Part shown: piece by piece, positions 1,567 to 23,501 of the stretch
Layout: each line of letters starts with the position of its first letter
Position numbering within the stretch: position 1 is the stretch's first letter
NCBI RefSeq assembly: GCF_028682395.1
Contig: NZ_JANHLC010000010.1
Location: 124,001 to 188,000 of the forward strand
Reading direction: 5' to 3'
Length of the DNA stretch: 64,000 nucleotides
Origin: Pseudomonas putida
GTDB lineage: Bacteria > Pseudomonadota > Gammaproteobacteria > Pseudomonadales > Pseudomonadaceae
Notes under the pieces: generated by a model
What the model saw: only the letters and a program-made list of their open reading frames with translations
The model's database searches: none
What the model was told of the DNA's origin: nothing
Translations under genes and position numbers: made by a program

Positions 1567-4431
1567 ATGCAACTGACCCAAGCCCCAGCCCCCGGTGCCC
1601 GTGCACTAATCCGCGATGAAGAGTGGATTATCCAGAATGCAGACCAATGTAATCTTGGCGGGTGGCAGCTTTCGTGTATTGGCGTGTCGGAAACCGTGCG
1701 CAATCGTCATGCTCTTTTCCTCACTCAGCTCGAAGACGTTACCCTGATTGATCCAGCAAAAACTGAGCTGGTGTACGACGACTCGCCCACATTTATTGCT
1801 TCGCGGCTGTTTATCGAGGCGCGTCTGCGTCAGTCGGCGCTGCAAAGCGAATCGGTAGTGATTGGTCAGCATGGGGTGATGGATGCGCTGCCGTTTCAGT
1901 TGCAGCCTGCTCATCAGGTCTTGCAGCAGCTGCGCCCGCGCTTGCTCATTGCGGACACAGTAGGTTTGGGTAAAACCCTTGAGGCCGGCATCCTTACCGC
2001 CGAGTTGATGCGCAGGGGTAAAGCCCGTCGCATTTTGGTGGTCACTACCAAAAGTATGATGCGCCAGTTTCAGCAGGAGTTCTGGAACCGCTTTACCATC
2101 CCGCTCACCCGCCTGGACTCAGCCGGTATTCAGCGCATTCGTCGCGATATCCCAGCCAATCACAATCCCTTTAACTACTACGACCGCACCATCATCTCGG
2201 TCGATACCTTGAAGCGCGACAGCGAGTACCGGCACTACCTGGAAAGCGCCTGGTGGGATCTAATTATCATCGACGAAGCCCACAACGTTTCCTACAAAGG
2301 CAATCGCACCCAGAGCAATCGCTTGGCCGAGTTACTCTCGCAACGCTCCGATGCACTGATCTTGCTCACCGCCACGCCACACAACGGCAAAAAGGACAGC
2401 TTCGCCAGCCTCGTGCGCATGCTCGACCCCACGGTGCTGCCAGCAGGGGCCGATTACACCCGCGAGGATGTCGATCACCTTTTTGTTCGACGTTTCAAGA
2501 AAGACGTGCGCGAGCAGATGAAGCAAGAGTTCCCAGAGCGAGAAGTGTTTCGTTTGGCCTGCGCCGCAAGCCCGGCGGAAAACCTCGCCTTCGATGCGCT
2601 AGCCGAGCTCAAACTTAATAGCGACGGGACCGGTGCGCGCGACGGTGCCATGTTGTTTCGCACTGTGTTGGAAAAGGCGCTGTTCTCTTCCCCGGCAGCC
2701 TGCCTACAAACGCTAAAAGAGCGCATCCGAAAGCTTGAGGTAAAAGACGCACGCCATCCTGATCTTGAGGGGCTGCGTGATCTTCACGCTCTGGTGCAGG
2801 GCATCAGTGCCGAAAAATTCAGCAAATTGCAGCACCTCATTAACCAGCTCAAACAAGGTCAGCACTGGCGTTGGGATGGCAAAGATCCAAGTGACCGCCT
2901 GGTGATCTTCACCGAGCGAGTGGAAACACTGAAATTCCTCCAGCTTGAGCTGCCCAAGGCCCTGGGTTTAAAAGATATCGCCGTAGCCATTCTGCACGGC
3001 CAATTGCCTGATCAGGACATCCAGCAAACGGTCGAAGATTTCGGCAAAACCCATTCGCCCCTGCGCCTGCTGATTGCTTCGGATGTAGCCTCCGAAGGTC
3101 TTAACCTGCACTACCAAGCTCATCGGCTGATCCACTTCGATATTTCCTGGTCGCTGATGGTGTTCCAGCAGCGCAATGGTCGTGTGGATCGCTATGGTCA
3201 ACTGCATGCCCCGAAAATCGGCTACCTGCTGACCGAACCGCGCCACGAAAGAATTCGCGGTGACTTGCGCTACCTGGAAATTCTGATCGATAAGGACGAG
3301 CAGGCGGCAAAGAATATCGGCGACCCATCAGCCTTTATGGGACTGTATGACGAGGAATTGGAAACCATCGAAGTGGCCAAGGCCATTGAAGGCAACCGCA
3401 CTGCCGATGAGTTCGCCGCGCTACTGGTTGGGGATGATATCGACCCGTTCGAGGCCTTATGGGGCGCGAACGTACCCAGCAACGATAACGTTGTGCCCGC
3501 CAGCACAGCAGCGTTCATGGCGTCCACTGCTGAACTCACCAGTCTGTTTAGCGACAGCTACATTTACCTTCGCGATGCCTTGCGCTGGCTGGCGAAACAG
3601 TCATCGCGCGAACATGCTGAAATCAAAACGGATGATGCCAGCCGCACGCTAAGCTTCCAGCCCAGTCGCGACCTTGCCCAGGTGCTGAAGCGTGATCTGG
3701 CCAGCGAAATGTGGCCGACCGATAACACCTTTGCCTTGAGCGCCGACAAAACCGTGGTTGAAGAGGCGATTAAACAGGCACGCGACACCAATGCCTGGCC
3801 GCAGCTGCATTACCTCTGGGCGCTCAACCCCATTGCCCAGTGGCTCGACTACAAACTTATGGCTCTGTTCCGTCGTCAGCGTGCGCCGCTGCTACGCGTC
3901 GCACAGGGGCTGGCCTCAGGCGAAGCCATCGTACTGGTGCTGGCTCAGGTGCCCAACCGCCGTGGTCAAGCTGTGCTAGCCGAGTGGCTCGGTGTACAGC
4001 TCAATGCTGCTGGGCAAGTACAGGGCGTACTCAGCCTGGCGGAAACACTGCATCGCACAGGGCTGAACAGCACCGGAAAAGCCCAAGCCAACAATGGCCA
4101 GGCGCCCAACAGCCATGCCCTGCAAAGTGCACTACCCGCGGTTATTCAGGCTGCTGAGAAACACATCAAACCGATCAAGCAGGCCTTCGATGCCAGCTGC
4201 CGCGAGCGTCTGGAACGCGAGTTGGCCAAGCTGCAAACCCTGCAGCTCAAACACAACGAACAGCTGGAAATCGATTTCGCCAAAGGTATCGAAAAGGTCA
4301 TCGCGGCCAAACGTAAGCAGAAAGAAAGCGCCACCGCAGACCTGTTCAGCAACTACCAACAATGGATTCGCGACACCCTGCAACTGGATGACCGCGCTCA
4401 GTTCACCGTTGTCGCTGCACTGATGGCTTAA
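1567..4431 (+). CDS. SNF2-family helicase, DrmD-like
   Basis: This 954-residue protein is an SF2 helicase of the SNF2 class. Walker A TVGLGKT is at residues 131-137, the DEAH box at 236-239, [10 protein letters not shown] follows (motif III), and the C-terminal lobe has [10 protein letters not shown] and an arginine-finger motif [12 protein letters not shown] near 533-545. The C-terminal third (about 650-954) is rich in charged helices and unassigned. In class 1 DISARM a SNF2 protein of similar size (DrmD) is encoded directly upstream of a large adenine methylase, exactly as here. The start follows an AAGGA seven bases away. It is the first gene of a plus-strand set; the next gene begins 14 bases after the stop. 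The helicase call is certain; the DrmD assignment rests on size, motifs and neighbour. Confidence 0.85.
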
Positions 4432-4445
4432 GGAAGGAATACAGC

Positions 4446-7400
4446 ATGAGTTTTGCCATCACCGGCCTCACCAATGCCAACGAGTTCTACAGCCAGCACT
4501 ACCTGGACGAGATCCTCGAAAAAGACCTCAAACCGCTGTTTGACCAATGGAAAGAGCAGGGCGCGCAAAGCCCTGTCGCTCGTCTGCGCACTGCGGCGGG
4601 GGCAAATGGTTACTTCCGTGCCCGCGAGCGCTTTCTGAATGAGCGTAAAACCAGCGAGCGCTCCAGCCTGTTTATTGACTTGGTGCAGCCTCTGCTCGCC
4701 GCCCTGGGTTACGAGCTAGCGCCGCAGAACCTGACGTTGGCCGAAGGCGAATTGCCGGTGCTCGCGGTGTATCGCGATGCCAAACACCAGCCGCTTTTGG
4801 TCATTGCGGCAGCTATTGCTAATGCGGATGACGACGACAGCAGCCCGCTGCAATTGCTTGCGCCAGCGGCCAGTGAGCAAGGCAAAGGTAAATATGCCCA
4901 CAGCGCCTGGGAAGAAACCCTCAGCAAGCGTCTGTTTGCCGACGACCACCCGCCACGCTGGGTGTTGCTGCTGCACCATGAAGAGTGGCTGCTGATCGAG
5001 CGCAGCAAATGGGGGCGCAAGGCACTGCTGCGCTTCAACCTGCCGGAGCTATTCGGCCCGCGTGACGACAAGCAATTCCGCGCCATGGCGGCTCTGCTGG
5101 GCAGCCAATCGGTGCTGCCGGTGGAAGGTGGCGTGGCGCTGCTCGATAGCCTGGATGACAGCTCGCACAAGCATGCCTTTGAGGTATCAACTGATCTCAA
5201 GTACGCCCTGCGTGAATGCATCGAGCTGATTGCCAACGAGGCCATCTGGTACAAGCGCACGGTTGCCAAGGAGAAGGTGTTCGAGCGTAACGACACCGAC
5301 CTGGCTGACCAGCTCAGCCGTGAAAGCCTGCGCTATATGTACCGCCTGCTGTTTATGTTTTATATCGAAGCGCGGCCCGAGCTGGGCTATGCGCCCATCG
5401 ATGCCGAGGCCTACCTCAAGGGCTACAGCATCGAGCACCTGCGCGAGTTGGAACAAACCCCGCTGACCACCAGCGAAGCCCAGGAAGGTTTCTATTTTCA
5501 CGATAGCCTCAAGCAACTCTTTGGCCTGATCTGGCAAGGCTATCCGCGCCGGGATGCCACAGCGAGTCAGCTCGACCTGAGTGGCAGCCATGACGGCTTG
5601 CTCGATAACGGCTTCACCATTGCGCCGCTGCAAGGCCACCTGTTTGACCCGGCGCGCACACCGCTGCTGGGTAGCGTCAAGTTGCGTAACTCGGTGCTTC
5701 AGAAGGTCATCGAGCGAATGTCACTGTCCCGTGGTGGTGGCAAGAGTCGCCGTGGGCGTATCAGCTATGGCACCCTCGGTATCAACCAGCTAGGTGCAGT
5801 GTACGAATCGCTGTTGTCCTTCCGCGGCTTTTTTGCTGAAGAAGATTTGTACGAGGTGCGCCCTGACCCCAAGGGTGGGGAGGCCTCCTCTGCTGATAAT
5901 GATGGCGACGAGAGTGAAGAAGGCGACTCAAGCGAGAGCAATACGGACAGCGAGGAAAGCCTCGATACCCCCAGCGCGGCCGAGAAGAAAAAAGACGCCG
6001 AGGTCAACCCGCTGGATGCTGCGTACTTTGTACCTGCCAGTAGCATTAGCCAGTACACCGACGCCGAACGCCTGTTTGGCGGCAATACCAAGATTCATTC
6101 CAAGGGCAGCTTTATCTATCGCCTGGCCGGTCGTGCCCGCGAGAAGTCGGCCAGTTACTACACCCCTGAAGTGCTGACCAAATGCCTGGTCGAGCATGCG
6201 CTCAAGGAAATCCTGCCCGGTAAAACGGCGGACGAAATTCTGAAGCTCACTGTGTGCGAGCCGGCCATGGGCAGTGCGGCGTTCTTGAACGAGGCTGTCA
6301 GTCAATTGGCCGAAGCCTATTTGCAGGCCAAACAGAAAGAGCTAGGTCGCACCATCCCGCACGAGCAGTACACCGAAGAAAAGCAGCGGGTGAAAATGTA
6401 CATCGCCGACAGCAATGTCTTCGGTGTGGACCTTAACCCCATCGCGGTGGAGCTGGCCGAAGTCTCCTTGTGGCTTAACGCCATTTTCAAAGGCAGCCAT
6501 GTGCCGTGGTTTGGCTTGCAGCTGTATAACGGTAATTCTCTGGTGGGTGCGCGGCGTGAGCTGTTTAGCACCGCCCAGCTCAGCCCGGGCAAAGGCGAAA
6601 ACGGCCTGCCTGAAAGAGACTGGCGCGCCGCCGCACCGCGTGCCTTGCCGCTGACGCAAACACTGACGGCTACCGATGTGTTCCACTTTTTGCTGCCTGC
6701 TGAAGGCATGGGCATGGTTAGCGACAAGGTGGTCAAGGAGCTGGAGCCAGCCGCCTTCGAGCAGTTTAAACAATGGCGCAAAGCCTTTACTGCGCCGCTG
6801 AGTCGCGATGAAATCAAGCGAGTGCAGGCGCTGAGTGCCGCCACCGAGCAGCTCTGGCAGCAACACGCCCAGGAGCTGGCCCGTGTGCGTGCCGCCACCT
6901 GCGATGAACTGCATGTGTGGCCCGACCCGGCCGCCAACCGCGCTCCGACTAGCACCGCGCAGAAAGACGCCGCATACCAGCGGGAAATGCTTAGCGAAGC
7001 GCAGAAAAATGCCAGCCCATACCGCCGCCTCAAACTAGTGATGGATGCGTGGTGCGCCCTGTGGTTTTGGCCGCTGGACAAAGCCAGCGAGTTGCCCAGC
7101 CGTGAACACTGGTGGTTTGTGCTGGAAACCGTGCTGCTCGGCAATGCCAGCCTGAGCAGCGCATTGGCGGATGACCTGTTCCCGGAAACCCAGCCGCAGC
7201 AGGGGCTGGATTTTGCTCCCGAGCGAGACCGTTATGGCCATGTGGACATCGCCGCACTGGTCGAAGCCCTGCCGCAATTGCAGGTGGCTCACCAGGTGGC
7301 CGGGCAGCAGCACTTTATGCATTGGGCGCTGGAGTTTGCTGATGTATTCAAAGCCCGTGGTGGCTTCGATGTGGTCCTCGGTAATCCGCCGTGGATCAAG

Positions 7401-9404
7401 GTGGAGTGGAATGAGCAGTCGCTGCTGTCGGACTTTGACCCGCGCTTTGTCATTCGCAAGCTCAGCGCCAAGCAGACGGCGGATCAGCGCGAGGCAGTGT
7501 TTGCTGTGCTGCCGCAGGCGCAAGCGGATTACCTGGCCGAATGCGTGGCCACCGAGGGTATGGGCCAGTTCCTCAATGCCATTCAGAACTACCCATTGCT
7601 GAAGGGCCAGCAGAGTAACCTATACAAGTGCTTCCTGCCGCTGGTATGGAATATTGGCAGTGGTGTACAGGCGTTAGTTCATCCTGAAGGAGTGTATGAC
7701 GACCCCAAGGGCGGCGAACTACGGCAAGCGATTTATCCACGGCTTCGTCAGCACTACCAATTCCAGAACGAATTTGCGCTATTCGAGGGAACAAACGATC
7801 ACGGCCGGATGCGCTTTGGCTTACACATCTATGGTTCTGCACAGGGTCAGATTTTTTTCAAATCTATGTCGAATCTATTTTGGCCGGAGACCATCCGAGC
7901 TAGCCTCGACCACCCCGGTGGCGGAGTCACACCGGGTATTAAACGCGACGAAGGAGGCTGGAATATTGCCGGCCACGCCAGTCGTGTGATTGAAGTGGAT
8001 GAGGCCTTGCTGGCCACCTTCGCGCAACTGTACGACGCACCTGGAACCCCGGCCCTTCAGGCGCGACTGCCAGCAGTGCACAGCCGCGAACTGGTTTCGG
8101 TGTTGAAAAAGTTCACTAGCGTGCCGCGCCGTCTGGGTGATTTGCAGGGCGATTACTTCACCCTGGAAATGTGGCACGAAACCGGTGCGCAGAAGGACGG
8201 CACTATTCGCCGTCGTAGCGCTAGCGAGCAGGGTTTTGTCGCTGCCCCAAATGAATTCGTACTTTCCGGCCCGCATTTCTTTGTCGGCAACCCGATCAAC
8301 AAAACCCCGCGCACGGCCTGCACCCAAAACAGCCACTATGATGTGATCGACCTCGAAACCCTGCCCGATGACTACCTGCCGCGTAGCAACTACTTGCCCG
8401 CATGTGACGCCGTCGAATACTCCCGCCGCGTGCCTCAGGTTAGCTGGGTTGAAATGGGTAGGCGTGAGGCGAGGGCGGTGACAGATTATTACAGGGTGGC
8501 CTACCGCGGAATGCTGCCCCCCTCAAACGAGAGGACATTGTTTGGCGCTATTATTCCCCCGGGCCTGACGCACACAAATGGGTGCCGCACGTATGCGGTT
8601 TCCCCCGATCATTTGAATGAACTGATAGTTTTTGGTGCGCTATCTTTTTCCATTGTCACCGACTACAGAATTCGGAGTAGCGGGAGGACAAATCTGCACT
8701 CCATGCTTGACGATTTCTCGCTGCTTGGCTCGGATTCTGCTGCTTTCAAACCTTTGTTATTACGCGCATTACAGCTTAATTGCCTCACTACCCACTACGC
8801 CGACCTCTGGCGCGATTGTTGGCAACCCGAGTTCCGCCAAGACTGTTGGGCTAGCACAGACCCGCGCCTGCCGAGGGATTGCTTCGCCAACCTTACTCCC
8901 GAATGGCAGCGCCACTGCGCCTTGCGCAGCGAGTTCGCCCGCCGTCATGCGCTGGTGGAAATCGACGTGCTCACATCGCAGGCACTGGGCCTGACCCTCG
9001 AAGAGCTTCTTACTATTTACCGCGTACAGTTCCCGGTGATGCGCCATTACGAGCGTGACACTTGGTACGACGCCAAGGGGCGCATCGCCTTCACCGCCAG
9101 CAAGGGCCTGGTCGGCGTTGGCCTACCGCGCAAGGCCGGTAAGCGCGATGCCGATTGCACCGTTCGCCTGCCTGATGGCAGCACCAGAACCTCTCGTCTG
9201 GGATGGGAAGATATACAACCCAAGGACGGTCATCCCCAAGTCCCAGACGGCACCATCATCGAGCGTCCTATCCTCGACGACACCCAACCCGGCGGCCCGA
9301 TACCACGCACCATCCAATACACCGCCCCCTTTACCTTAGCCGACCGCGAAGCCGACTACCGTGTGGCTTGGGCGAAGTTTGAATCGGAGCAGTTGAATGA
9401 CTGA
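4446..9404 (+). CDS. Large Eco57I-like N6-adenine DNA methyltransferase (DrmMI-like)
   Basis: At 1652 residues this is a giant class I adenine methylase. The SAM-binding motif EPAMGSAAF starts at residue 605 and the catalytic NPPW is at 980-983 ([11 protein letters not shown]), the order of the gamma class that includes Eco57I, PglX and DISARM DrmMI. About 480 residues precede an acidic, low-complexity linker (about 478-525, rich in Asp, Glu and Ser), then the methylase core. The region after NPPW (about 1000-1650) probably serves target recognition. I see no clear PD-(D/E)XK nuclease motif, so methylation rather than cutting is the likely activity, marking host DNA for the helicases encoded beside it. 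Class 1 DISARM methylases are similar but usually shorter. Confidence 0.85.
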
Positions 9405-9407
9405 GGA

Positions 9408-9518
9408 ATGTTCGATGAGGAATGGCGAGGGAGAGACGGCATGTCGTACAGCGCCGAAGAAGAGTTTAAAAAGCTGATCCCTGAGTACCGGGCAGTCCTG
9501 GTTATTCAATTGGTGTGA
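9408..9518 (+). CDS. Possible 36-codon small ORF between methylase and DUF262 genes
   Basis: An open frame begins with ATG three bases after the methylase stop, with an in-frame second ATG at 9441 that follows a good AGGGAGAG. The product (36 or 25 residues) has a charged helix (EEEFKKLIPEYRAVLV). It may be a short real peptide, a remnant of a deleted gene, or chance; the 185-base gap in an otherwise tightly packed gene set is what makes it worth noting. Confidence 0.25.
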   Translation: MFDEEWRGRDGMSYSAEEEFKKLIPEYRAVLVIQLV

Positions 9519-9589
9519 GGCTTGTATGGCTTTTCCCTACACGGTGCTGAAAGCACGTTAACGTTACGACCCCTCAGGGAAGAAAAATT

Positions 9590-11263: not shown

Positions 11264-11265
11264 TC

Positions 11266-14200
11266 ATGCAGCCATTGATCGTTTCCCAGCAGGTCACTCA
11301 AGGCGTCGCAGACTTTCTGTGTACCGCATTCCCGTCCACTACTTCAGGTTTTGAGGGCTTGCTGGAGCGCTTTTTGGCTGAGCGCAGCAATATCTTCAAA
11401 GGGCCGTATCTGACGTTGCCACTGCCATTTCGCAAGCAGCTGAATGGCGGTCTATCGGCTTTCCCTTGGTTACCTGCCAGCTTTGTGCCCCATGCACATC
11501 AGGCCAAGGCTTTTGCGCGACTGGCGGTTTCCGAGGCTCAATCCACGTTGGTGGCAACGGGTACGGGGTCGGGTAAGACCGAGTGCTTTCTATATCCGAT
11601 CCTTGAGCATTGTCGTGTGGCGCGTGCCGAGGGGCGGCGTGGCATCAAGGCGATCATCCTTTATCCCATGAATGCCTTGGCCAGCGACCAATCCGGGCGC
11701 GTGGCCAAGGAAATCGTTAAGGCTGCTGGCCTTAGTGGGATTCGTGCAGGCTTGTATGTGGGCGATGCGCCGGCTGTCGAGTCGCAAACGGTCGCCCAAT
11801 TGAGCGACGGCAGTTATTCGGTGATTACCGACCGCAATGCCCTGCGTGAAAATCCGCCGGATATTCTGCTGACCAACTACAAAATGCTGGATTTTTTGCT
11901 GCTACGTGCAGCTGATGCCCCTTTGTGGGCGCATCAGTTGCCAGACACGCTGCGTTATTTGGTGGTGGATGAGCTGCATACGTTTGATGGCGCGCAGGGT
12001 ACTGATCTGGCTTGTCTGATTCGCCGTCTCAAGGGGCGGCTGAATGCGCCGCCGGGCCAGTTGGTGTGCGTCGGTACTTCGGCAACGTTGGGCGATGACG
12101 GCGTTAGCGATTTGCTGGACTTTGCCGGTGATGTGTTTGGTGAAGTGCTGGATGACAGTGCGGTTATCTCCGAGGACCGCGAGTCGGTTGGGGATTATCT
12201 CGCTGAAGCCCTGGTTGAGTTCACCCAAAGCCCGCAGCCCAGTGATCTGCATACCTTGGCCCCCGAGAACTATGACGACCTGCATACCTATCTGGCGGCC
12301 CAAGCACCCTTGTGGTTCGGTGAGCCTTGCTCGGTCACGCAGGCAGAGAATTTTGCTTGGCGCTGTGGCTTAGGTAAGGACCTGAAGAGCCACTTTGCCT
12401 TCCAGAATCTTTTGCGGGATTTGGAGCGTCTTGGGCCAAAGTCCGTGTTGCTGGATGACCTGTTAGTGCTGCTCAAACGCCGTTTGCCGAGCTGCGATGA
12501 TGAGCGCTTTGCGCTACTTTGGTTGTCTAGCCTGCTGTCGTTGGTAGCGCATGCACGCCAGGATGCACATCAGAACTTTTTCTTGCAGGTGAAGGTGGAA
12601 ATCTGGCTACGTGAGTTGCGCCGCATGGTGGCTGTGCTGGATGCTGAGCCGCAGCTTCGGCATCACGATGACTTACGTAAAGCCGATATGGAGCGGCTGC
12701 ATCTGCCGGTGATCCATTGCCGCGAGTGCCACGCCACCGGCTGGGGTTCTACGCAACAAAAGATCAGTCCCAATCAACTGACCCATGACCTCCAGGCGTT
12801 TTACAGCGCGTTCTTCGCCGAGGATGTGACCACCCGTTTTATTTTTCCTTCCAGCGTGGGGGCGAACCCCGCAGTGTTCCAGCGCAAGCAGGCATGTCCT
12901 GCGTGCGGCACCTTGCATCAGGCATCGCAAACCGAATGCTCACACTGTGAGGATCAGCCTTTGCTGGCCGTGGATATTGCCAGCAACCTGCGTGAAGGTA
13001 CGCGCAATGGCGCGAAGTACACCAAGTCGCACCATGATTGTCCTTTCTGTGCCGGTTATAAAACGCTGACGATTGTTGGTTCGCAAGCGGCCAGTCTGGC
13101 GGCGGTAATGGTGGGACAGCTGTTTGCAACGCGCTTCAACCCGGACAAGAAGCTGATTGCTTTCTCTGACTCGGTACAGGATGCCGCGCATCGTGCAGGG
13201 TTCCTTGCCGCGCGAACCTGGCGAATGAACTTACGCCCGGCGTTGGCGCAGGTAATTGCTGATGCCTATGCAGCTGGGCGACCTATGACATTGGAAAATT
13301 TGCCAACAGCATTCGCGCAACGTTGGCGCACTGCGCTAGGCGATGGTCATTACATTGCTAACTTCCTGCCGCCGCAAATGCAGTGGCTACGTGATTACGA
13401 GACCCTGATGGAAGAGGGGGCGCTGCCTGAAAGCAGCAACCTACCTGGCGAGTTGGCGAGGGTGTTGCCTTGGGTGCTCAATGCAGAATTTGGCCAGGAT
13501 GCTCATATTGGTCGCACTCTGGTGGCGACGGGAACTGCTTGCGTAGTGCCTCTTGCAGGCAAGTTAGACGAAGCCGCTCAATGGCTGATGCCACGTCTAC
13601 GTGACACGCTTGAACCGTTAGCCGCCGCGCAGCTGGCCGAAGTTGTTGTTTTACTGCGCGGGCTACTGGAAAACATGCAGCGCATCGGGGCTTGGCGTGA
13701 TCAGGAGCTAGGGTTTTATGCGCGAATGGGTAGCAGCCCTTGGGGATATAAGAAGAATCCAAGCCAGTTCAAGCTTCTAACCAGCCCGCGGCCTCCGAGG
13801 TTTTTGACACTGGGAGAGTTTGGTCGCTGCGTCAGTATCACTAAGAGCCATGCCCGTTTGTTTAGCGACTGGGCGTTTAAGGCATTGCCTGCTTTGCATG
13901 ATCTGGCGCTGGGCACGAATGCCTTGATTGCACCGCTTTATCGGCTTGCTCTTGAGGCATTGGAAAGCGTTGGCTTAGCAGGTTTTGAGGAGGCCACCGA
14001 GAAGCCGGATATCCGTGTATGGGGGCTGGAGCCCTCTGCTTTCCACGTTATCTTGGGGGGCAAGGTGTGGCGGTGTGCCAGCTGCCATAGCACCACACAC
14101 TCTGGCCCAGAGGATGACTTTTCTGAGCAAGCGTGTCGCCGCGTTGATTGCAGGGGTGAGTTGCAGGCACTTGAGTTATCCGGTGATTTTTATCGCAAGC

Positions 14201-17200
14201 TTTACCTGAATGCGGACATTCAGCGGGTGGTAGCGCATGAGCATACCGGCTTGCTGCCGCGCGAGACACGCGAGGCGGTAGAACGTAACTTCAAATCCAA
14301 CAGTGATCGCCCTGGCGGCATCAATGTGCTCTCCGCAACACCCACGCTGGAAATGGGCATCGACATCGGCGATTTATCCAGTGTGCTGCAATGTTCGGTT
14401 CCTCCACAGCAGGCAAACTACATTCAGCGAGCAGGACGGGCAGGGCGTAGCACGGGTAATGCGTTGCTGATGAGCATGGCGACCAGCAAGCCGCATGACC
14501 TGTATTTCTGGGATGACCCGAAAACTATGATTGCAGGTTCCGTGCAGGCACCTGGGGTTTTCCTTAACGCCTCTGCGGTACTTGAACGTCAACTTACAGC
14601 GTTCACTTTGGATTGCTGGGTGCATGAGAACGGGCGGGCGGCGCAGATCCCTCAGGAAATTCGTGGGGTGTTCACTGCGATCAATAATCAGACCAACAGC
14701 AAGTTTCCTTACCCTTGGTTGAGTTATGTGGAACAGCACCAGGCGTCGCTTCTTGAACGGTTCTTGCGCTTGTTCAATCAGGGGGATATGTGCCCTTTGA
14801 GCGACGGTACGTGCCAATGGTTGGCTAATTTCATTCAGGGCAGCAACGGTGATAGCAGCCCGTTGGCGTACAAGATCGTCAACCGTTTGCAGGGCATTGC
14901 AAGTGATGTTGAAAGCATCAAGCGCAAGCGTGAGGCCGCAGTGAAGGAGATCGATAAGCTGCAGGCATTGACGGTGCGTGGTGAGGATCAGGATCTGGAG
15001 CTGGCACGACTGCTTCAAGATCGAACTGCGCTTTCGCGTTTGATTGGCAGTATTGAGGGTAAGGCTACGCTCAATGTGCTGACTGATGAGGGCTTGCTAC
15101 CCAACTATGCGTTCCCGGAGCAAGGTGTACTGTTGCGCTCGATCATTGTGCGCGATTCAAAGCCTGGAACATCCGCTCCTGATCCTCTGACCTTCGAATA
15201 TGAGCGTCCTGGATCAACGGCCATCACTGAGTTGGCACCGAACAACACCTTTTATGCCGAAGGCAGGCGGGTGGTGATCAACCAGATCGACGTATCGAAG
15301 ATCAAGCCGGAGCACTGGCGTTTCTGTAGGCAGTGCTCCTATACCGAGCCGCTGTCGTCAGGTGATCAACACCCTAACTGCCCACGGTGTGGTGATACGC
15401 TGTGGCGGGACAGTGGACGCGTACACGAAATGCTGCGCTTGACCACGGTATTTGCCCGCACGCTGGATCGCGATAGCCGTATTGCTGACGACTCAGACGA
15501 GCGTCAGCGCGGCTTTTATGTGCGCCAAGCTTTGGTGGATAGCCCGCCTGATGCGGTGCGTCAGGCCTTTGTGATTGACGAGCAGACATTTCCTTTCGGC
15601 TTCGAGTTTCTCGATCGGGTGACTTTTCGCGAGGTGAACTTTGGCGAGCAGTCAGCGGAAGGCATGCCGATGGAGATCGGCGGGAAGGAACTCAGTCGCC
15701 CTGGTTTTAGCATCTGCCCCGAGTGCGGCACCTTGCAGCGCAAGCGCAAGGCCGAGGAGCTGTATCGCAACCATTCGTCCTGGTGTGGGAAGCGCAAGAA
15801 CCCCGAGGCGAGCACGCAGCAATGCGTGTTCCTCTACCGCGAGTTCACTAGTGAGGGCATACGTCTGTTTTTGCCTGAGGTGGGTTTTGCTGATACCAAC
15901 GAGGCCCTGCTGAGCTTTGTGTCGGCTCTGGAGTTGGGGTTGGCGCGGCGGTTTAGGGGAGCCGTGGACCATCTGCGTATTGCTCTAGATATGCGTATGG
16001 CTGCGGGCTCAGATACGCCGCGTTGTTATCTGGTGATCTACGACAGCGTGCCAGGTGGCACCGGCTATCTCAAGGAATTGATGCGCGTGCCCGAACCGCT
16101 GTTGGAAGTATTCGACATTGCACTGCAAGCCCTCAATACCTGTACTTGCAACCAGAATGCGGACACCGATGGCTGTTATCGCTGCGTGTACCGCTATCAC
16201 AACAGCCATGATCGTAAGTCTATCTCGCGACGTACAGCTCAGAAGTTGTTGGGTGAGGTGATGCAGTACAAGGGAGCACTGAAGCCAGTTACCCATCTGG
16301 CCGACGCCCAGCCAGCTAACCAGTTACTGGATAGCATGCTGGAGAAGCGGTTTGTCGAAGCGCTGCGCCGTGAGCATGAAGGTGAGAAGTTCAAGCTGAG
16401 TGAGCTGTTGTTCAAGGGCAAGGCGGGCTATCAGATACAGGCTGGCTCGCGTCGCTGGCGGATGGAGTTGCAGGTCAATCTGGGAGCCAGCGAAGGTGTG
16501 TTGATTCCGTGCAAGCCTGACTTCGTGTTCTGGCCAGACGATGCCGCCGCCGACCTGCCCGTGGCGGTCTTTGTTGATGGTTGGCAGTACCACAAAGACA
16601 TAATTACTACAGATATGGCCAAACGTATGGCGGTGGCCAAGAGCGGGAAGTTCTCAGTCTGGACGCTGACCTGGGATGATGTCGAATGCGCTTTGCAAAA
16701 CCTGGTATTACCTACGCCATCGCCTTGGGCAACTTTGCTTAATGATGATCCGCAGCAGGTAGTGCAGAAGCTGTGCGCGGCACAGGGCATCGCAACACTC
16801 TCCAATTTCAAATCGTTGCCGTCCTTTACCCAGCTGCATCAGCGTTTGGCCCATGGGCAACACCAAGCACTCGGAAAATTGGCTGTCTCCTTGGCTGCGG
16901 GAATGTTGATGCCTTCGGGGGATGCCACCGCGCTTCAAGTTTTGCGCGAAGGGGCCTTCTGGAACCGCTTGGATGAGCTGGGCCTGCTAGCAGACCTGCA
17001 ATTTCATAGGTTGAGCGTGCGTCAGCTCGGTACGGCCTGGATGCTGGGCATTGCCATGCACCCGGAGCATATGAAGCAAGTGATGACCGGCAATGGTTCT
17101 GCGGACTCTGAGCCTGTTCTGGTTGGCGAGTGGAAAGAAGATGGCCTGCCCGAAAGCGAGCTCCAGTTACGCTGGCAGCAACTTTGGCAGGCACTTAACT

Positions 17201-17598
17201 TATTGTTGCCGCTGAGTCAGATTTGGGTTGGCAACGCTGAAATGCCAGGGTTACCTGCGCTGCGGGATTGTTCTGCGCTCAAAGCGAAATCAGGCGGGCT
17301 GTCTGTAGCCTGGCAGGAAGCGCTGAGTCTGGCTGCTCATGAAGTACAGACTTGGGGCTTGGCTCTGGCTGGTTTGGACGTGACCGCCCCGGAAGTGGGC
17401 TATGAGTTGATGGACGAAAAAGGTCGAGTAATAGCCGAAGCTGAATTGGCTTGGCCAGATGTTCGTACCGCCGTACTACTGCCAGATTCTGGAGCAGAGG
17501 CTGCGCTTTTTGCTGGCCAAGGTTGGCATTCTTTTACCGCTGACGGCAGTGAGTTGCCTGATGAGCTGAGAACCCTTTTGATGGAGACACTGGCATGA
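11266..17598 (+). CDS. Giant DEAD/DEAH helicase with DUF1998 and C-terminal Vsr-like nuclease motif
   Basis: This 2110-residue protein has SF2 motifs Walker A GTGSGKT (99-105), DELH (235-238), GTSATLG, and in the second lobe SATPTLEMGIDIGDL and QRAGRAGR (1054-1061). Several CxxC zinc pairs interrupt it (near 485, 545, 590, 945, 1355, 1485). A DUF1998 cysteine cluster follows: C1626, C1628, C1637, C1640. Beyond it, at about 1750-1800, lies PDFVFW then AVFVDGWQYH (D1771, H1776), closely like the Vsr/very-short-patch endonuclease signature. Helicases of this size with DUF1998 include DruE of Druantia; in DISARM the same functions are split between DrmA and DrmB. The gene overlaps the next one by four bases. 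Domain calls are strong; joint nuclease action is inferred. Confidence 0.85.
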   Translation: MQPLIVSQQVTQGVADFLCTAFPSTTSGFEGLLERFLAERSNIFKGPYLTLPLPFRKQLNGGLSAFPWLPASFVPHAHQAKAFARLAVSEAQSTLVATGTGSGKTECFLYPILEHCRVARAEGRRGIKAIILYPMNALASDQSGRVAKEIVKAAGLSGIRAGLYVGDAPAVESQTVAQLSDGSYSVITDRNALRENPPDILLTNYKMLDFLLLRAADAPLWAHQLPDTLRYLVVDELHTFDGAQGTDLACLIRRLKGRLNAPPGQLVCVGTSATLGDDGVSDLLDFAGDVFGEVLDDSAVISEDRESVGDYLAEALVEFTQSPQPSDLHTLAPENYDDLHTYLAAQAPLWFGEPCSVTQAENFAWRCGLGKDLKSHFAFQNLLRDLERLGPKSVLLDDLLVLLKRRLPSCDDERFALLWLSSLLSLVAHARQDAHQNFFLQVKVEIWLRELRRMVAVLDAEPQLRHHDDLRKADMERLHLPVIHCRECHATGWGSTQQKISPNQLTHDLQAFYSAFFAEDVTTRFIFPSSVGANPAVFQRKQACPACGTLHQASQTECSHCEDQPLLAVDIASNLREGTRNGAKYTKSHHDCPFCAGYKTLTIVGSQAASLAAVMVGQLFATRFNPDKKLIAFSDSVQDAAHRAGFLAARTWRMNLRPALAQVIADAYAAGRPMTLENLPTAFAQRWRTALGDGHYIANFLPPQMQWLRDYETLMEEGALPESSNLPGELARVLPWVLNAEFGQDAHIGRTLVATGTACVVPLAGKLDEAAQWLMPRLRDTLEPLAAAQLAEVVVLLRGLLENMQRIGAWRDQELGFYARMGSSPWGYKKNPSQFKLLTSPRPPRFLTLGEFGRCVSITKSHARLFSDWAFKALPALHDLALGTNALIAPLYRLALEALESVGLAGFEEATEKPDIRVWGLEPSAFHVILGGKVWRCASCHSTTHSGPEDDFSEQACRRVDCRGELQALELSGDFYRKLYLNADIQRVVAHEHTGLLPRETREAVERNFKSNSDRPGGINVLSATPTLEMGIDIGDLSSVLQCSVPPQQANYIQRAGRAGRSTGNALLMSMATSKPHDLYFWDDPKTMIAGSVQAPGVFLNASAVLERQLTAFTLDCWVHENGRAAQIPQEIRGVFTAINNQTNSKFPYPWLSYVEQHQASLLERFLRLFNQGDMCPLSDGTCQWLANFIQGSNGDSSPLAYKIVNRLQGIASDVESIKRKREAAVKEIDKLQALTVRGEDQDLELARLLQDRTALSRLIGSIEGKATLNVLTDEGLLPNYAFPEQGVLLRSIIVRDSKPGTSAPDPLTFEYERPGSTAITELAPNNTFYAEGRRVVINQIDVSKIKPEHWRFCRQCSYTEPLSSGDQHPNCPRCGDTLWRDSGRVHEMLRLTTVFARTLDRDSRIADDSDERQRGFYVRQALVDSPPDAVRQAFVIDEQTFPFGFEFLDRVTFREVNFGEQSAEGMPMEIGGKELSRPGFSICPECGTLQRKRKAEELYRNHSSWCGKRKNPEASTQQCVFLYREFTSEGIRLFLPEVGFADTNEALLSFVSALELGLARRFRGAVDHLRIALDMRMAAGSDTPRCYLVIYDSVPGGTGYLKELMRVPEPLLEVFDIALQALNTCTCNQNADTDGCYRCVYRYHNSHDRKSISRRTAQKLLGEVMQYKGALKPVTHLADAQPANQLLDSMLEKRFVEALRREHEGEKFKLSELLFKGKAGYQIQAGSRRWRMELQVNLGASEGVLIPCKPDFVFWPDDAAADLPVAVFVDGWQYHKDIITTDMAKRMAVAKSGKFSVWTLTWDDVECALQNLVLPTPSPWATLLNDDPQQVVQKLCAAQGIATLSNFKSLPSFTQLHQRLAHGQHQALGKLAVSLAAGMLMPSGDATALQVLREGAFWNRLDELGLLADLQFHRLSVRQLGTAWMLGIAMHPEHMKQVMTGNGSADSEPVLVGEWKEDGLPESELQLRWQQLWQALNLLLPLSQIWVGNAEMPGLPALRDCSALKAKSGGLSVAWQEALSLAAHEVQTWGLALAGLDVTAPEVGYELMDEKGRVIAEAELAWPDVRTAVLLPDSGAEAALFAGQGWHSFTADGSELPDELRTLLMETLA

Positions 17599-19694
17599 CG
17601 CTGGCACTCAAGATTGCAATGTCCGATGACTTCTTAAAGTCGTTTTCAGCAGTTCCTCGCTCTCACCAGCAGGCGGTGCTGACCTTCGTCGCCAAGTTTC
17701 GTCAGAACCCGATGGCAAGCGGCATCAATTACGAACGCATTCGTGATGCTGCCGATCCGAACATGCGCTCGGTACGGATCAACGACAATATGCGCGGCAT
17801 CGTGCTCAAGCCTGATGTGGGTAACGTGTATTGCCTACTGTGGGTCGATCAGCATGACGATGCCTATCACTGGGCGCGTCGCCATCGAGTCGCGATCCAC
17901 CCGGATGTTGGTAGTATTCAGGTTTATGCAGTGCAGGAGACGGCTTATGCGACGGTATCTGACATACCGGCTGAAGTGCGAGCAGCAGGTTTGTTCGATG
18001 CACTCAAAGACCGTGAAATTCGCCGCCTGGGCGTACCTGACGACCGGCTGGAAGCTGTGCGTGCCGTTACTAATGAACGCGAGCTTGAGGTGTTGGAGGC
18101 ACAATTGCCCGATGAGGCATACGAAGCGTTGTATCTGTTTGCTGCCGGCGAGCCTTTTGACAAAATCATCAGTGATCAATCCGCGCCAGCGGCGGTCGAC
18201 CCTACAGACTTCGGTGCTGCGCTGGAGCGTGATAGCTCACGTCGTCATTTTGTGGTGCTTACTGACGACAGCGATCTGGAAGCTTTACTGGCCGCACCTC
18301 TTGAACACTGGAGGGTCTTTCTGCACCCAAGCCAGCGTAAGTTGGTGGAGCGCGACTGGAATGGTCCTGTGAAGGTGACCGGTGGCGCAGGTACTGGTAA
18401 AACCGTTGTAGCCATGCATCGCGCTGCAAGACTTGCACGACAATACGCGGACTTGCCTGGTCGTCCTGTGCTGTTTACCACTTTCACCAAAACTCTGGCT
18501 GAGGACATCCGCCAGCATTTGGCTCTGCTGTGCACACCGCAGGAGCTGGAGAAAATTCAGGTGGTGAACCTGGATCAGTGGGCTTCCAGCCTCCTGCGTC
18601 GTTTTGGTTACTCACATAACCTGTTGTACAACGAAGGCGACCGTCGCCGTTTCTGGCAAGCAGCCCTGTCGGCGATGCCGGCATCGGTTGATCTCAGTTT
18701 GCCGTTCATGCGTGCCGAATATGAGCGGGTTGTGCTTCCTCAAGCCTGCGAAACTGCTGACGACTATATGCGTGCCAGTCGAGTGGGCCGCGGCGGTCAG
18801 CTTGGCCGTGCAATGCGTAAGTCTATTTGGCCGGTGTTTGCCGAATACCGTGCCCAACTGCAAGCCGCCAATTTGCGCGAGCCTGAAGAGGCCTTTCGTG
18901 AAGCTTGTCAGTTGTTAAGAAAGGAGAAGCCCGTACTCGGTGTTCGTTGCATGGTGGTGGACGAAGCTCAGGACATTAGCAACGCGGGCTTTGAGCTAAT
19001 TCGTACGGCAGTAGAGGAAGCCGAAAACGACCTGTTTATTGTTGGCGATGCCCACCAACGTATCTACCGGCACAAAGTTGTGCTTAGCCGGGTGGGTATC
19101 GAGGTTCGCGGCCGCAGCCATAACCTGAAGGTGAATTACCGAACCACCGACGAAATCCGTCAATGGGCCTGCGCTCAACTCGAAGGATGTGCTGTCGATG
19201 ACTTGGATGGCAACGTGGACTCTCTGCGCGGTTATCGGTCTCTGACACATGGTGATGTGCCAGATATCATCGAGTCGTCTTCCGCGCACGAAGATATGCC
19301 GCATATAAAGGCGATCCTTAAACAGTTGCAGGACGATGGGATGGAGCCTCGACAGGTTTGCATCACTGCGCGTACCAATGACGATCTGGATAATGTCGCT
19401 CGGGCTCTGCAGCAGGCAGGTATTGTTCACTTGAAACTGGACAACTCTACCTCTGACGATTCGGCACAGCCGGGCGTTCGCCTTGCCACCATGCACCGCA
19501 TCAAAGGGCTTGAGTTTAGCGTAGTGATTGTTGCCGCCTACAGAGGAGCCGCTTCCTACGCCGACCAATTAAGCCGTGATGAGGATGCAGGGGTAACCGA
19601 AGATACTGAAGTTTCTGAAAGATGCCTGCTGCACGTTGCTGCTACTCGAGCAAAGAGAAATTTGTTTCTCCTAGTGCGGCCCTCTGGTGACTGA
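17595..19694 (+). CDS. UvrD/Rep-like SF1 helicase with RelE-like N-terminal domain
   Basis: A 699-residue protein whose ATG overlaps the stop of the giant helicase (ATGA). Residues 1-95 look like a RelE/ParE toxin fold (a small basic domain with helix-rich start, the RSVRIN strand and a hydrophobic VYCLLWV strand). The helicase core begins at GGAGTGKT (263-270), with VVDEAQD (454-460), GDAHQRIYR (motif III), HRIKGLEFSVV (motif V) and VAATRAKR (motif VI). SF1A helicases of this kind unwind 3' to 5'. RelE-like/UvrD fusions are known in defence neighbourhoods and DNA repair contexts. Whether the N-terminal fold still cuts RNA is unclear; I could not identify a catalytic set. It is the last gene of the cassette, ending 9 bases before a strong hairpin. 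Confidence 0.82.
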   Translation: MTLALKIAMSDDFLKSFSAVPRSHQQAVLTFVAKFRQNPMASGINYERIRDAADPNMRSVRINDNMRGIVLKPDVGNVYCLLWVDQHDDAYHWARRHRVAIHPDVGSIQVYAVQETAYATVSDIPAEVRAAGLFDALKDREIRRLGVPDDRLEAVRAVTNERELEVLEAQLPDEAYEALYLFAAGEPFDKIISDQSAPAAVDPTDFGAALERDSSRRHFVVLTDDSDLEALLAAPLEHWRVFLHPSQRKLVERDWNGPVKVTGGAGTGKTVVAMHRAARLARQYADLPGRPVLFTTFTKTLAEDIRQHLALLCTPQELEKIQVVNLDQWASSLLRRFGYSHNLLYNEGDRRRFWQAALSAMPASVDLSLPFMRAEYERVVLPQACETADDYMRASRVGRGGQLGRAMRKSIWPVFAEYRAQLQAANLREPEEAFREACQLLRKEKPVLGVRCMVVDEAQDISNAGFELIRTAVEEAENDLFIVGDAHQRIYRHKVVLSRVGIEVRGRSHNLKVNYRTTDEIRQWACAQLEGCAVDDLDGNVDSLRGYRSLTHGDVPDIIESSSAHEDMPHIKAILKQLQDDGMEPRQVCITARTNDDLDNVARALQQAGIVHLKLDNSTSDDSAQPGVRLATMHRIKGLEFSVVIVAAYRGAASYADQLSRDEDAGVTEDTEVSERCLLHVAATRAKRNLFLLVRPSGD

Positions 19695-19743: not shown

Positions 19744-20382
19744 TTACTGGTTAACACTGCGGCGCTCTGTCAGCTTAAGCTTTGCAAGCCTCCTAAGGCT
19801 TGGGCATAAACCTACGTTTTCGCATCCGATCACCTTTTCAATCCAGTCGAATTGGCTGTCTCGGACTTGCATTCTGGCGTATTTCAGCGCTTGAAGCGTT
19901 GCATCGGCTAAAGCTTTATCTCCGATTGAAATACGCACGGGTTCGTAAGCAAGAATATCGACTGTAGTAATAAGTTTGAGTGTTTCAAAGCGTTGGGAGG
20001 AAATTTGAGTTGCTTTTTTTTCATCAATGACAGCCGTGAACCCGTTGCTATGTGCAAGCGCGAGTGTCGCGGCTTCTCCGTCTCCGAGCGAGGCCGCTGT
20101 GGATCCGGATACCAAGTCAAAGAAGTGCTCTAGTGCAATGCCAGAAAGCTCTTCTCTCTTTAAAATTTGATTATGGATTAGCTCCGAAAGCTGTTTGGGC
20201 TCAGGCCGGCCGTTTACTGCTCCTAGCTCAATCTCCCGTATTACATTGTCGGTGACGACAATTGGAGTCGGAACTGCTTGCAGGATTGCGCTTGCATAAC
20301 CGGTCGCCAGCAAGTTTATGATGACACTGGCGTCGAGAACGAGAATGCTATTTCGATCAGTGAGACAGCTTGAAAAGGTCAT
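19744..20382 (-). CDS. PIN-domain nuclease
   Basis: The 212-residue product opens with ILVLDASVIINLL, the first acidic strand of PIN RNases, then VIREIE, GDGEAATLALA and AVIDEKKA, giving the usual set of Asp/Glu metal ligands. I chose ATG at 20382 because AGAGGA lies eight bases upstream; the frame is open to 20409. It overlaps the 3' end of the upstream metallopeptidase gene by 26 bases, so the two are cotranslated. PIN proteins are mostly ribonucleases and toxins, and PIN genes paired with XRE/ImmA genes are a known toxin-antitoxin arrangement. Here the pair is downstream of a QueC-like gene, which suggests an effector role. Family firm, substrate unknown. Confidence 0.8.
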   Translation of the reverse strand: MTFSSCLTDRNSILVLDASVIINLLATGYASAILQAVPTPIVVTDNVIREIELGAVNGRPEPKQLSELIHNQILKREELSGIALEHFFDLVSGSTAASLGDGEAATLALAHSNGFTAVIDEKKATQISSQRFETLKLITTVDILAYEPVRISIGDKALADATLQALKYARMQVRDSQFDWIEKVIGCENVGLCPSLRRLAKLKLTERRSVNQ

Positions 20383-22899: not shown

Positions 22900-23501
22900 A
22901 ACGATACCCCGTCATCAAGACCTTCCATCTTCCTAGGTGGGAGGATTCGAGCGGGCTCTGGACCCACAAGATCCAGACCGAGTTGGGTGCTCGATAGAGT
23001 AGAAATGGCATTCTGGAGTCTCTTACTCACGTACTCTGCTCTTTGCTCATTCGAGTCGCGAAGGTAGTGTTCTTCGATCGACCGTATGTTTGCGTGGCAG
23101 CGGTCTTTAGCGGCGAGGCCTACCGCCTCATGGAATGCTTCAATTCCAAATTTGCCTTCATGGATAAGAGTGATGCTCCATTCCACAAGATTCGTTCCAA
23201 AAACGGAGGCTGCTGCTAGGGCTTTCGCATTTTCAAGTTGATCCAGCGCAAGTTCCGGCATTTCCAGAGAGTTATCACAGCCGGTAAAGACTGCTTTCAA
23301 GGCTTCCATCAGATGCCACGAGACCTCCATTTTGAAGTCGCTGGCAACTGCGTGCGTCGTTGCCTCTGCGATCTGGGAGGCGTCGTAGGTGTCTTGGTCC
23401 GCACGTTTTGCCAGTTCTTTCCATGGCTTTCGCAGCTTCAAGCTTCTATGTGGCCCATCGCTCATTTCGTCCAGCCCCCCAGTGAATACCGGTTTTGACA
23501 T
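22896..23501 (-). CDS. Unrecognised 201-residue protein, first gene of the QueC-like operon
   Basis: I do not recognise this family. The product is soluble, mostly predicted helix, with no signal peptide or membrane segment. Its first dozen residues contain a GG pair (VFTGGLDEM) and the last thirty are Pro/Gly-rich and flexible. Two starts are possible: ATG at 23501, which lies inside the operator arm and would give an almost leaderless mRNA, or ATG at 23465, which follows a GGGGGG about eleven bases upstream. The stop overlaps the QueC-like start by three to four bases, so the two products are probably made in step. A partner or substrate of the QueC-like enzyme is a reasonable guess only. 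Confidence 0.65.
   Translation of the reverse strand: MSKPVFTGGLDEMSDGPHRSLKLRKPWKELAKRADQDTYDASQIAEATTHAVASDFKMEVSWHLMEALKAVFTGCDNSLEMPELALDQLENAKALAAASVFGTNLVEWSITLIHEGKFGIEAFHEAVGLAAKDRCHANIRSIEEHYLRDSNEQRAEYVSKRLQNAISTLSSTQLGLDLVGPEPARILPPRKMEGLDDGVSL

What the first reader, a model, noticed from the sequence alone, without database searches (positions are those of the whole stretch)
1567..19694. Hybrid defence cassette: DISARM-like head, Druantia-like giant helicase, DUF262 and a RelE-UvrD helicase
Seen: five large genes in one direction, with gaps of 14, 185, 2 and -4 bases. Established: class 1 DISARM has SNF2 helicase (DrmD) + adenine methylase (DrmMI) + helicase + DUF1998 protein + PLD nuclease; Druantia has a giant DEAD/DEAH-DUF1998 helicase. 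Here the helicase and DUF1998 are in one 2110-residue protein, no PLD nuclease is present, and a DUF262/HNH gene and a UvrD-like gene are added. Inference: this is a single multi-gene antiphage system in which methylation marks self and three NTP-driven motors plus nucleases attack foreign DNA. I cannot say if the arrangement has already been named.
Basis: partly seen in the sequence, partly recalled or inferred. Interest (0 to 1): 0.78.

Follow-up and report, generated by a model that had tools for sequence, protein, structure and literature searches.

The report
ARMADA defence operon with cargo slot
The five genes are a recently named bacterial anti-virus system (ARMADA type II) carrying a second, separate DNA-cutting defence gene inside it, at a spot where related bacteria carry many other defence systems.

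Summary
The genes and gaps are as reported. Four of the five genes are ARMADA type II (armA-armB-armC-armD), described and phage-tested in a September 2025 preprint (PMC12458937); all eight residues mutated there are conserved here. So this is not an unnamed hybrid. The fifth gene, DUF262/HNH between armB and armC, is a BrxU-like type IV restriction enzyme (fold match to BrxU, E 1.4e-19), with 75%-identical stand-alone relatives elsewhere.

Three points I did not find in the texts I could search. (1) The armB-armC junction is a cargo slot: over 300 bp inserted in 37 of 73 loci, against 2 of 56 (armA-armB) and 2 of 95 (armC-armD). Cargo includes Gabija, Zorya II, CBASS, PsyrTA and Mokosh. The window keeps a 13-codon stub of a deleted CBASS cyclase. 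(2) ArmB residues ~1050-1500 are hypervariable between otherwise similar operons, as expected of an exchanged target-recognition domain. (3) ArmC and the Zorya II nuclease ZorE share a C-terminal domain.

Mechanism (inferred): ArmB methylates self sites; ArmA, ArmC and ArmD act on unmarked DNA; the BrxU-like enzyme covers modified phage DNA.

The parts
1567..4431 (+). armA: BrxHII/DrmD-like SNF2 helicase, 954 aa
   Evidence: Pfam SNF2-rel_dom, Helicase_C; PADLOC DrmD 1.5e-95, BrxHII 3e-62; K136 and D236 of the tested E. coli ArmA conserved
4446..9404 (+). armB: PglX-like N6-adenine methylase, 1652 aa
   Evidence: Pfam Eco57I, N6_Mtase; G609 and N980 (NPPW) correspond to G605 and N971 of the tested E. 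coli ArmB
7593..8946 (+). hypervariable part of armB (residues about 1050-1500), predicted target-recognition domain
   Evidence: DNA identity to G387 drops to 51-76% here while most of the operon is 88-100%; same trough in 17 of 18 ArmB pairs with ArmC identity of 80% or more
9447..9485 (+). 13-codon relic of the 3' end of a CBASS cyclase (SMODS) gene, stop codon lost
   Evidence: 12 of 13 residues as in the intact cyclase of G285 (L015:9601-10374); same relic in G387; SLATT and SMODS identified in L015
9590..11263 (+). slot cargo: BrxU-like DUF262/HNH type IV restriction enzyme, 557 aa
   Evidence: Pfam GmrSD_N 4e-27; PADLOC HEC-05 2.1e-44; AlphaFold2 pLDDT 83, Foldseek BrxU 7p9k E 1.4e-19; profile match to BrxU 1.2e-115; DGQQR 100-104 and DHIFP at 456
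11266..17598 (+). armC: YprA-like DEAD helicase with MZB/DUF1998, Vsr-like nuclease motif (about residue 1771) and C-terminal domain, 2110 aa
   Evidence: Pfam DEAD, Helicase_C, MZB; PADLOC DruE 8e-109; K104 and D235 correspond to K110 and D234 of the tested E. coli ArmC; nuclease-motif residues invariant among four homologues
17389..17577 (+). C-terminal domain of ArmC that is shared with the Zorya II nuclease ZorE (extent in the window from pairwise match)
   Evidence: blastp ZorE of L039 against window ArmC tail 44% over 63 aa, E 3.6e-10 in a small set; profile matches 94 of 97 ArmC tails and three ZorE
17595..19694 (+). armD: RelE-like domain fused to GajB-like UvrD helicase, 699 aa
   Evidence: Pfam UvrD-helicase, UvrD_C; RelE-like fold of residues 1-118; K269 and D456 correspond to K266 and D454 of the tested E. 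coli ArmD

Best explanation
The locus is an ARMADA type II operon whose cargo slot, the armB-armC junction, holds a BrxU-like type IV restriction gene. Shown here: gene content, order, conserved catalytic residues, recurrence of different defence genes at that one junction, and the relic of a CBASS module. Inferred: ArmB methylates adenine at sites chosen by its exchangeable target-recognition region and so marks host DNA. DNA lacking the mark is engaged by ArmA (SNF2 motor) and ArmC (YprA helicase with Vsr-type nuclease), helped by ArmD (RelE-UvrD), and phage DNA is stopped without killing the cell. The embedded DUF262/HNH enzyme works on its own: the NTPase half senses modified cytosine and the HNH half cuts, so phages that escape ARMADA by base modification are covered, as BrxU does beside BREX. 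The slot lies directly 3' of the methylase gene, as in BREX (between pglX and pglZ) and some type I R-M loci (between hsdS and hsdR); I infer that recombination which exchanges methylase specificity also moves cargo in and out.
For: Match of order, domains and eight tested residues to ARMADA II. Slot: B-C insert over 300 bp in 37 of 73 loci, A-B 2 of 56, C-D 2 of 95; in clusters of 70% ArmC identity 22 of 48, 2 of 39, 2 of 67, Fisher p 2e-5 and 2e-8. Cargo of named systems in it. Stand-alone relatives of DUF262. BrxU likeness. ArmB trough. CBASS relic. BREX and R-M parallels (passages).
Against: No experiment on this operon. ARMADA's restriction step is unknown in print. ArmB's methylation and site are untested, and no solved structure matches it by sequence. 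The Vsr nuclease is a motif reading only. The DUF262-ARMADA pairing persists in four genomes of the family, so a functional tie is not excluded. Filled/empty state is somewhat clustered on the ArmC tree (19 changes, shuffles 24). In 14 of 36 filled loci the cargo has no clear defence match or was not searched, and L131 appears to hold lipoprotein-like ORFs. ArmC also varies near its C-terminus in the less close pairs, and in L061/L136 the lowest window is in ArmD, not ArmB.
Confidence: 0.78

Rival explanations
1. The five genes are one obligate machine: DUF262/HNH is an integral nuclease subunit of a distinct ARMADA subtype and acts together with ArmC on DNA that lacks or bears ArmB's mark.
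For: DUF262 and armC are 2 bases apart, and the pairing is seen in four genomes of the family, in one case (G387) with 98.7% identical DUF262.
Against: E. coli ARMADA II protects with four genes. Close relatives of DUF262 stand alone. L074, with 67% identical ArmC, has PsyrTA and an ATPase in its place. By identity the stand-alone copies (75%) are nearer to the window's DUF262 than the ARMADA-borne copy of G115 is (66%), though the tree is unresolved.
Confidence: 0.1
2. The slot has no special role: it is ordinary defence-island churn, and B-C is simply the junction where an insertion costs least, with no link to ArmB's variable region.
For: Cargo is diverse, some of it not defence (L131), and inserts also occur, rarely, at A-B and C-D. 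Insertions between two halves of an operon are common in defence islands (passages).
Against: Excess at B-C over the neighbouring junctions of the same operons. Cargo mostly runs with the operon (81 ORFs with, 11 against). The same position relative to the methylase/specificity gene is used in BREX and a type I R-M island.
Confidence: 0.35
3. The ArmB variable region is not a target-recognition domain but a fast-evolving surface under pressure from phage inhibitors.
For: ArmB's function is untested, no solved structure matches it by sequence, and other parts of the operon, such as the ArmC tail, also vary in some pairs.
Against: It lies C-terminal to the NPPW motif (N980), where PglX carries its TRD (PMC11341690 passages). 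The trough is sharp and recurs at the same place in 17 of 18 pairs with ArmC identity of 80% or more, from 7 clusters. In L010/L017 ArmA, ArmC and ArmD stay at 92% or more in every 100-residue window while ArmB falls to 38%.
Confidence: 0.15

Closest known systems
ARMADA type II (Bell et al. 2025, bioRxiv 10.1101/2025.09.15.676423, PMC12458937; parts 1-4 of 8, figure legends and passages read)
   Same: Four core genes in the same order, same domains, all eight tested residues conserved
   Different: A fifth gene (DUF262/HNH) lies between armB and armC; the main text does not mention DUF262 or GmrSD or a variable slot in the parts read
BREX with BrxU (plasmid pEFER; passages in PMC10952713 and PMC11341690)
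   Same: PglX-like methylase system with a DUF262/HNH type IV enzyme next to it; the gap between pglX and pglZ often holds other defence genes, BrxU the commonest named one
   Different: No PglZ, BrxC or BrxL here; the motors are SNF2, YprA-like and UvrD helicases; BrxU and the window protein share about 21% identity
DISARM class 1
   Same: SNF2 helicase and PglX-like methylase, YprA/DUF1998 helicase functions
   Different: Helicase and DUF1998 are one protein, no separate DrmB, no PLD nuclease gene
Druantia (DruE)
   Same: Giant one-chain DEAD/DUF1998 helicase; best PADLOC match of ArmC
   Different: No DruH or DruA-D among the five genes; methylase and SNF2 helicase present instead
Defence genes embedded in other defence loci (guilt by embedding: Payne et al. 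2024, not held, seen as cited; DarTG2 between hsdS and hsdR, PMC12255303 passages)
   Same: One defence system inside the operon of another, behind the methylase/specificity gene
   Different: Host operon is ARMADA II; not found reported for ARMADA in the searches

Membership tests
ARMADA type II | Order BrxHII-like helicase, PglX-like methylase, YprA-like helicase, RelE-GajB helicase, same strand | tested here: met
   order interrupted only by the DUF262 gene
ARMADA type II | YprA-like helicase with DUF1998 in one chain | tested here: met
   DEAD, Helicase_C, MZB in the 2110-aa protein; 41% identity to the E. coli plasmid ArmC over its length
ARMADA type II | RelE-like domain fused to GajB-like helicase | tested here: met
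   UvrD, GajB 6e-27, RelE-like fold
ARMADA type II | Catalytic residues shown to matter in E. coli (K136, D236; G605, N971; K110, D234; K266, D454) | tested here: met
   All eight present; mapped through an E. coli plasmid copy whose numbering fits, not through NCTC 12900 itself
ARMADA type II | Vsr-type nuclease domain at the C-terminal part of ArmC | tested here: inconclusive
   Motif residues invariant in four homologues; no Pfam call; not folded
ARMADA type II | Place in the YprA tree among ARMADA II | not tested
   No tree with Druantia, DISARM and ARMADA I references was built
ARMADA type II | Protects against phages | not testable with these tools
   Needs experiment
DISARM class 1 | Separate DrmA helicase and DrmB DUF1998 genes, and DrmC PLD nuclease | tested here: not met
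   One-chain helicase-DUF1998; no PLD domain in Pfam for the five proteins
Druantia | DruE with DruH (type III) or DruA-D partners | tested here: not met
   None among the matches shown for the five proteins (lists cut at 25 families per protein)
BrxU / GmrSD type IV restriction (DUF262 protein) | DUF262 NTPase domain with DGQQR motif | tested here: met
   GmrSD_N 4e-27; DGQQR at 100-104
BrxU / GmrSD type IV restriction (DUF262 protein) | C-terminal HNH (DUF1524) domain | tested here: inconclusive
   DHIFP...N motif present, full-length profile and fold match to BrxU; Pfam GmrSD_C not called
BrxU / GmrSD type IV restriction (DUF262 protein) | Cuts DNA with modified cytosine | not testable with these tools
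   Needs enzyme assay

The most novel reading that the evidence does not exclude
ARMADA type II is a carrier platform. A recombination-prone stretch from the exchangeable target-recognition region of armB to the start of armC lets the operon swap both its methylation specificity and an on-board second defence system. Some cargo is physically coupled to ARMADA: ZorE and ArmC share a C-terminal domain that could dock both on the same partner or DNA, which would give a molecular reason why Zorya II lies inside (L039, L109) or beside (L128) ARMADA operons.
Probability: 0.28. Interest if true: 0.72.

Novelty: new variant of a known kind. Interest (0 to 1): 0.52.

Why it matters
It gives this locus a name and shows that a published defence system has a preferred entry point for other defence systems, at the same relative place as in BREX and a type I R-M island. 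That makes a general rule testable: cargo slots lie just behind the specificity/methylase gene. [quoted passage not shown] The ArmB variable region predicts that ARMADA is methylation-guided with one specificity factor; a 2026 review groups it with systems that restrict unmodified DNA by unknown mechanisms (PMC12904381, passage). The shared ArmC/ZorE domain is a concrete lead for how neighbouring systems might co-operate.

Tried and rejected
Unnamed hybrid: rejected, since four genes match ARMADA II. DISARM or Druantia proper: rejected on defining genes. Island ends: a search for a direct repeat of the tmRNA 3' end in 104 kb of the contig gave only a 13-base match at window 18339, inside armD, taken as chance; the element's left end is unknown. 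PDB sequence match for ArmB: none at E 0.001. The window DUF262 and the GmrSD protein of L063 have no significant pairwise match, so these are separate GmrSD branches. DUF262 tree: unresolved, so one or several entries into the slot cannot be told apart. ArmB was not seen upstream of ArmC in 30 loci, mostly because the contig ends; 8 of them have at least 9.9 kb of upstream sequence. Of these 8, G065 has ArmB about 19 kb upstream on the same strand and G006 has none in its genome; the other six (L036, L076, L081, L082, L088, L092) were not pursued. G730 also gave no ArmB, but its contig ends 5.8 kb upstream.

L111 is the same contig as L059 (counted; left out and from the cargo list). L064/L066 and the window/L107/L015 are close relatives; the cluster counts allow for this. 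The first gap script (30 of 61, 1 of 37, 2 of 71) used window proteins only; one search replaced it with profiles and more loci. The later sample alone gave 3 filled of 8 measurable B-C junctions, 0 of 7 A-B and 0 of 10 C-D.
Full report
WHAT IS THERE. Domain searches give an SNF2 helicase, an adenine methylase, DUF262, a one-chain DEAD/MZB helicase and a UvrD helicase. The first 118 residues of the UvrD protein fold like RelE/YoeB toxins (AlphaFold2 pLDDT 91; 21 PDB hits at E <= 0.001, the top one RelE 1wmi). The window lies in a 5.45 Mb genome. Its family is probably Pseudomonadaceae: a same-family genome, G221, holds a contig of the same length with the same locus as Stutzerimonas kunmingensis (L059/L111). 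This is an inference.

IT IS ARMADA TYPE II. A preprint of September 2025 (PMC12458937; I read parts 1-4 of 8 of its text, the figure legends and found passages) describes ARMADA type II: ArmA (BrxHII-like), ArmB (PglX-like), ArmC (YprA-like with DUF1998 and a Vsr-type nuclease) and ArmD (RelE fused to a GajB-like helicase), in strict order. It protected E. [quoted passage not shown] The window proteins are 41-50% identical to those of an E. coli plasmid copy, and all eight residues mutated in that work are present; two of the eight mutations had only partial effect in the paper. The same order was read on plasmids of E. coli, Aulosira and Microvirga and in many of the 80 contigs. The cassette is therefore a member of a named system.

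THE FIFTH GENE IS A GUEST. The main text of the preprint has no 'DUF262' or 'GmrSD'. The window's DUF262 protein (PADLOC family HEC-05, 2.1e-44; HEC stands for Hma-embedded candidate) is 75% identical to a stand-alone gene near a Zorya system on a Nitrosospira plasmid and to one on two viral-collection contigs. Its predicted structure (pLDDT 83) has BrxU, a GmrSD-type enzyme, as its best PDB match (7p9k, E 1.4e-19), and a profile of 14 relatives finds BrxU at 1.2e-115 over nearly the full length. The DGQQR and DHIFP...N motifs are present. BrxU acts on DNA with modified cytosine and complements BREX (PMC10952713 passages). Among 398 genomes of the window's family 11 have ArmC at E <= 1e-150. 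In four of these (window, G387, G285, G115) a DUF262 of this kind lies between armB and armC; G285 and G115 have further genes beside it.

THE JUNCTION IS A CARGO SLOT. I measured the three junctions with profile searches in all loci in hand that show them. More than 300 bases lie between armB and armC in 37 of 73 loci, between armA and armB in 2 of 56, and between armC and armD in 2 of 95. After clustering at 70% ArmC identity the counts are 22 of 48, 2 of 39 and 2 of 67 (Fisher p 2e-5 and 2e-8); four clusters hold both filled and empty junctions. On a FastTree of 72 ArmC the filled/empty state needs 19 changes, 17 of them forced by starred branches; shuffles need 24 on average, so the state is somewhat clustered. 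ORFs of 150 residues or more in the slot, called mechanically, run with the operon in 81 cases and against it in 11. In E. coli the 1,200-base stretch across the junction matched 519 of 5,426 genomes, and in 514 of them one place covers at least 80% of it; the tool joins pieces up to 1.1 kb apart, and all 60 rows shown are single pieces. The E. coli slot is thus empty or nearly so, which may be why the four-gene form became the reference (my inference). The largest slot seen is about 19 kb, in G065.

WHAT THE SLOT HOLDS. Pfam and PADLOC name, among others: Gabija (GajA 4e-289, GajB 4e-254; L058); Zorya II (L039, L109); PsyrTA (L074, a Pseudomonas dryadis contig, the nearest relative of the window group outside its family sample); Mokosh (L026); CBASS (SLATT + SMODS in L015; SMODS + patatin in L062); LeoA (L059); TmtA (L072); AbiEi/AbiEii (L049); SIR2 (L044); GmrSD (L063, L064); and the PADLOC candidates PDC-M07A (L037) and PDC-M68B (L068). 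Of 36 filled loci (L111 left out), 17 have a direct match of this kind, 5 more are similar in sequence to those (L107, L016, L066, L069, L065), 6 searched ones have no clear match (L023, L045, L053, L056, L061, L071) and 8 were not searched (L073, L075, L085, L087, L095, L131, L133, L134). L131 appears to hold only lipoprotein-like ORFs.

THE WINDOW HAS LOST A SECOND GUEST. In G285 the slot reads SLATT effector, SMODS cyclase, DUF262. The 185 bases before DUF262 in the window and in G387 still hold the last 13 codons of the cyclase, 12 of 13 residues identical in the window, without its stop codon. So the cargo once included a CBASS that has been deleted. The direction of the event is inferred from the comparison.

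ARMB SHOWS THE MARK OF SPECIFICITY EXCHANGE. Between the window and G387 most of armA, DUF262 and armC is 88-100% identical in DNA, but armB drops to 51-76% in window 7567-9066. The same trough at ArmB residues ~1050-1500 (lowest 100-residue window 29-56%) occurs in 17 of 18 pairs with ArmC identity of 80% or more, L111 rows left out; the exception is L020/L055, which are near-identical throughout. These pairs come from 7 clusters and are not independent. It is narrower or weak in some of the less close pairs. In 15 pairs compared gene by gene ArmB has the lowest window in 14; in L061/L136 ArmD is lower (47 against 51%), and in the less close pairs ArmC also varies near its C-terminus. The clearest pair, L010/L017, has lowest windows of 95 (ArmA), 38 (ArmB), 92 (ArmC) and 98% (ArmD). 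In BREX, PglX carries a target-recognition domain C-terminal to its methylase part and is the specificity factor for both methylation and defence (PMC11341690 passages). I therefore predict that ArmB alone sets the ARMADA site. The preprint's main text uses 'target recognition' once, for zinc-binding modules, and has neither 'TRD' nor 'methylation'.

A SHARED DOMAIN WITH ZORYA. The HNH nuclease ZorE of the Zorya II in L039 ends in a stretch homologous to the end of ArmC (blastp E down to 1.3e-14 in a small set). A profile grown from the window's ArmC tail matches 94 of 97 full-length ArmC in hand and, outside ArmC, only three ORFs of those loci, all ZorE: two inside the slot and one just upstream of an ARMADA operon (L128). 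In 72,556 plasmid records the ZorE tail matches 26, by annotation 9 zorE/HNH, 14 DEAD/DEAH helicases and 3 hypothetical proteins, of which two lie in the cyanobacterial ArmC. In the passages I found, two papers on Zorya II do not mention this; the papers were not read whole. A docking role is speculation.

HOW IT PROBABLY WORKS. Shown by others in E. coli: four genes needed, walker-motif and NPPW residues needed or contributing, no cell death. Shown here: conservation of those residues, the slot, ArmB variability, BrxU likeness. Inferred: adenine methylation as self mark, attack on unmarked DNA by the motors and the ArmC nuclease, and separate action of the BrxU-like enzyme on modified DNA. 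ArmB belongs to the adenine class by its families, so its own mark should not trigger an enzyme that senses cytosine modification; this too is inference.

KNOWN AND NEW. Embedding of one defence system in another is known: 'guilt by embedding' (Payne et al. 2024, not held; seen as cited), DarTG2 between hsdS and hsdR, BrxU and PARIS between pglX and pglZ. ARMADA II is known. An armB-armC cargo slot, exchange of the ArmB region and the ArmC/ZorE domain were not found in the searches nor in the passages consulted; supplements, figures and most subscription papers were not seen. I rate this a new variant of a known kind.

Noticed in passing
window 19744-23501 (-): Four opposite-strand genes beside ARMADA: PADLOC PDC-S70-like (1e-8), XRE + ImmA/IrrE (RmrA-like, 3e-26), QatC-like (6e-32) and a 201-aa protein without a clear match; no QatA, QatB or QatD was seen among them.
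   Followed up: partly
window 24530-25825 (-) and 25968-26356 (-): Tyrosine integrase next to a tmRNA gene, as expected of an island inserted at tmRNA; no flanking direct repeat of 14 bases or more was found within 104 kb.
   Followed up: partly
L005 11575-17138 (-), about 3 to 8.4 kb left of the window: HerA/FtsK-like ATPase next to a dynamin-like GTPase on the same contig, possibly a further defence pair.
   Followed up: no
L039:3930-5048, L109:10592-11683, L128:914-2134: ZorE nucleases of Zorya II end in the same domain as ArmC; two lie in the ARMADA slot, one just upstream of an ARMADA operon.
   Followed up: partly
G006:C1:12220 onwards (L110): armC-armD without any armB match in that genome at E 1e-30, beside housekeeping genes read by eye: an orphan half of the system.
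   Followed up: partly
L036 and L062, armC-armD junction: Rare inserts of 2.1 and 3.7 kb between armC and armD; contents not examined.
   Followed up: no
window 1 to about 460 (-): RadC-like ORF read by eye from the sequence, not searched; RadC genes also occur on the ARMADA-bearing elements of PMC12458937.
   Followed up: no
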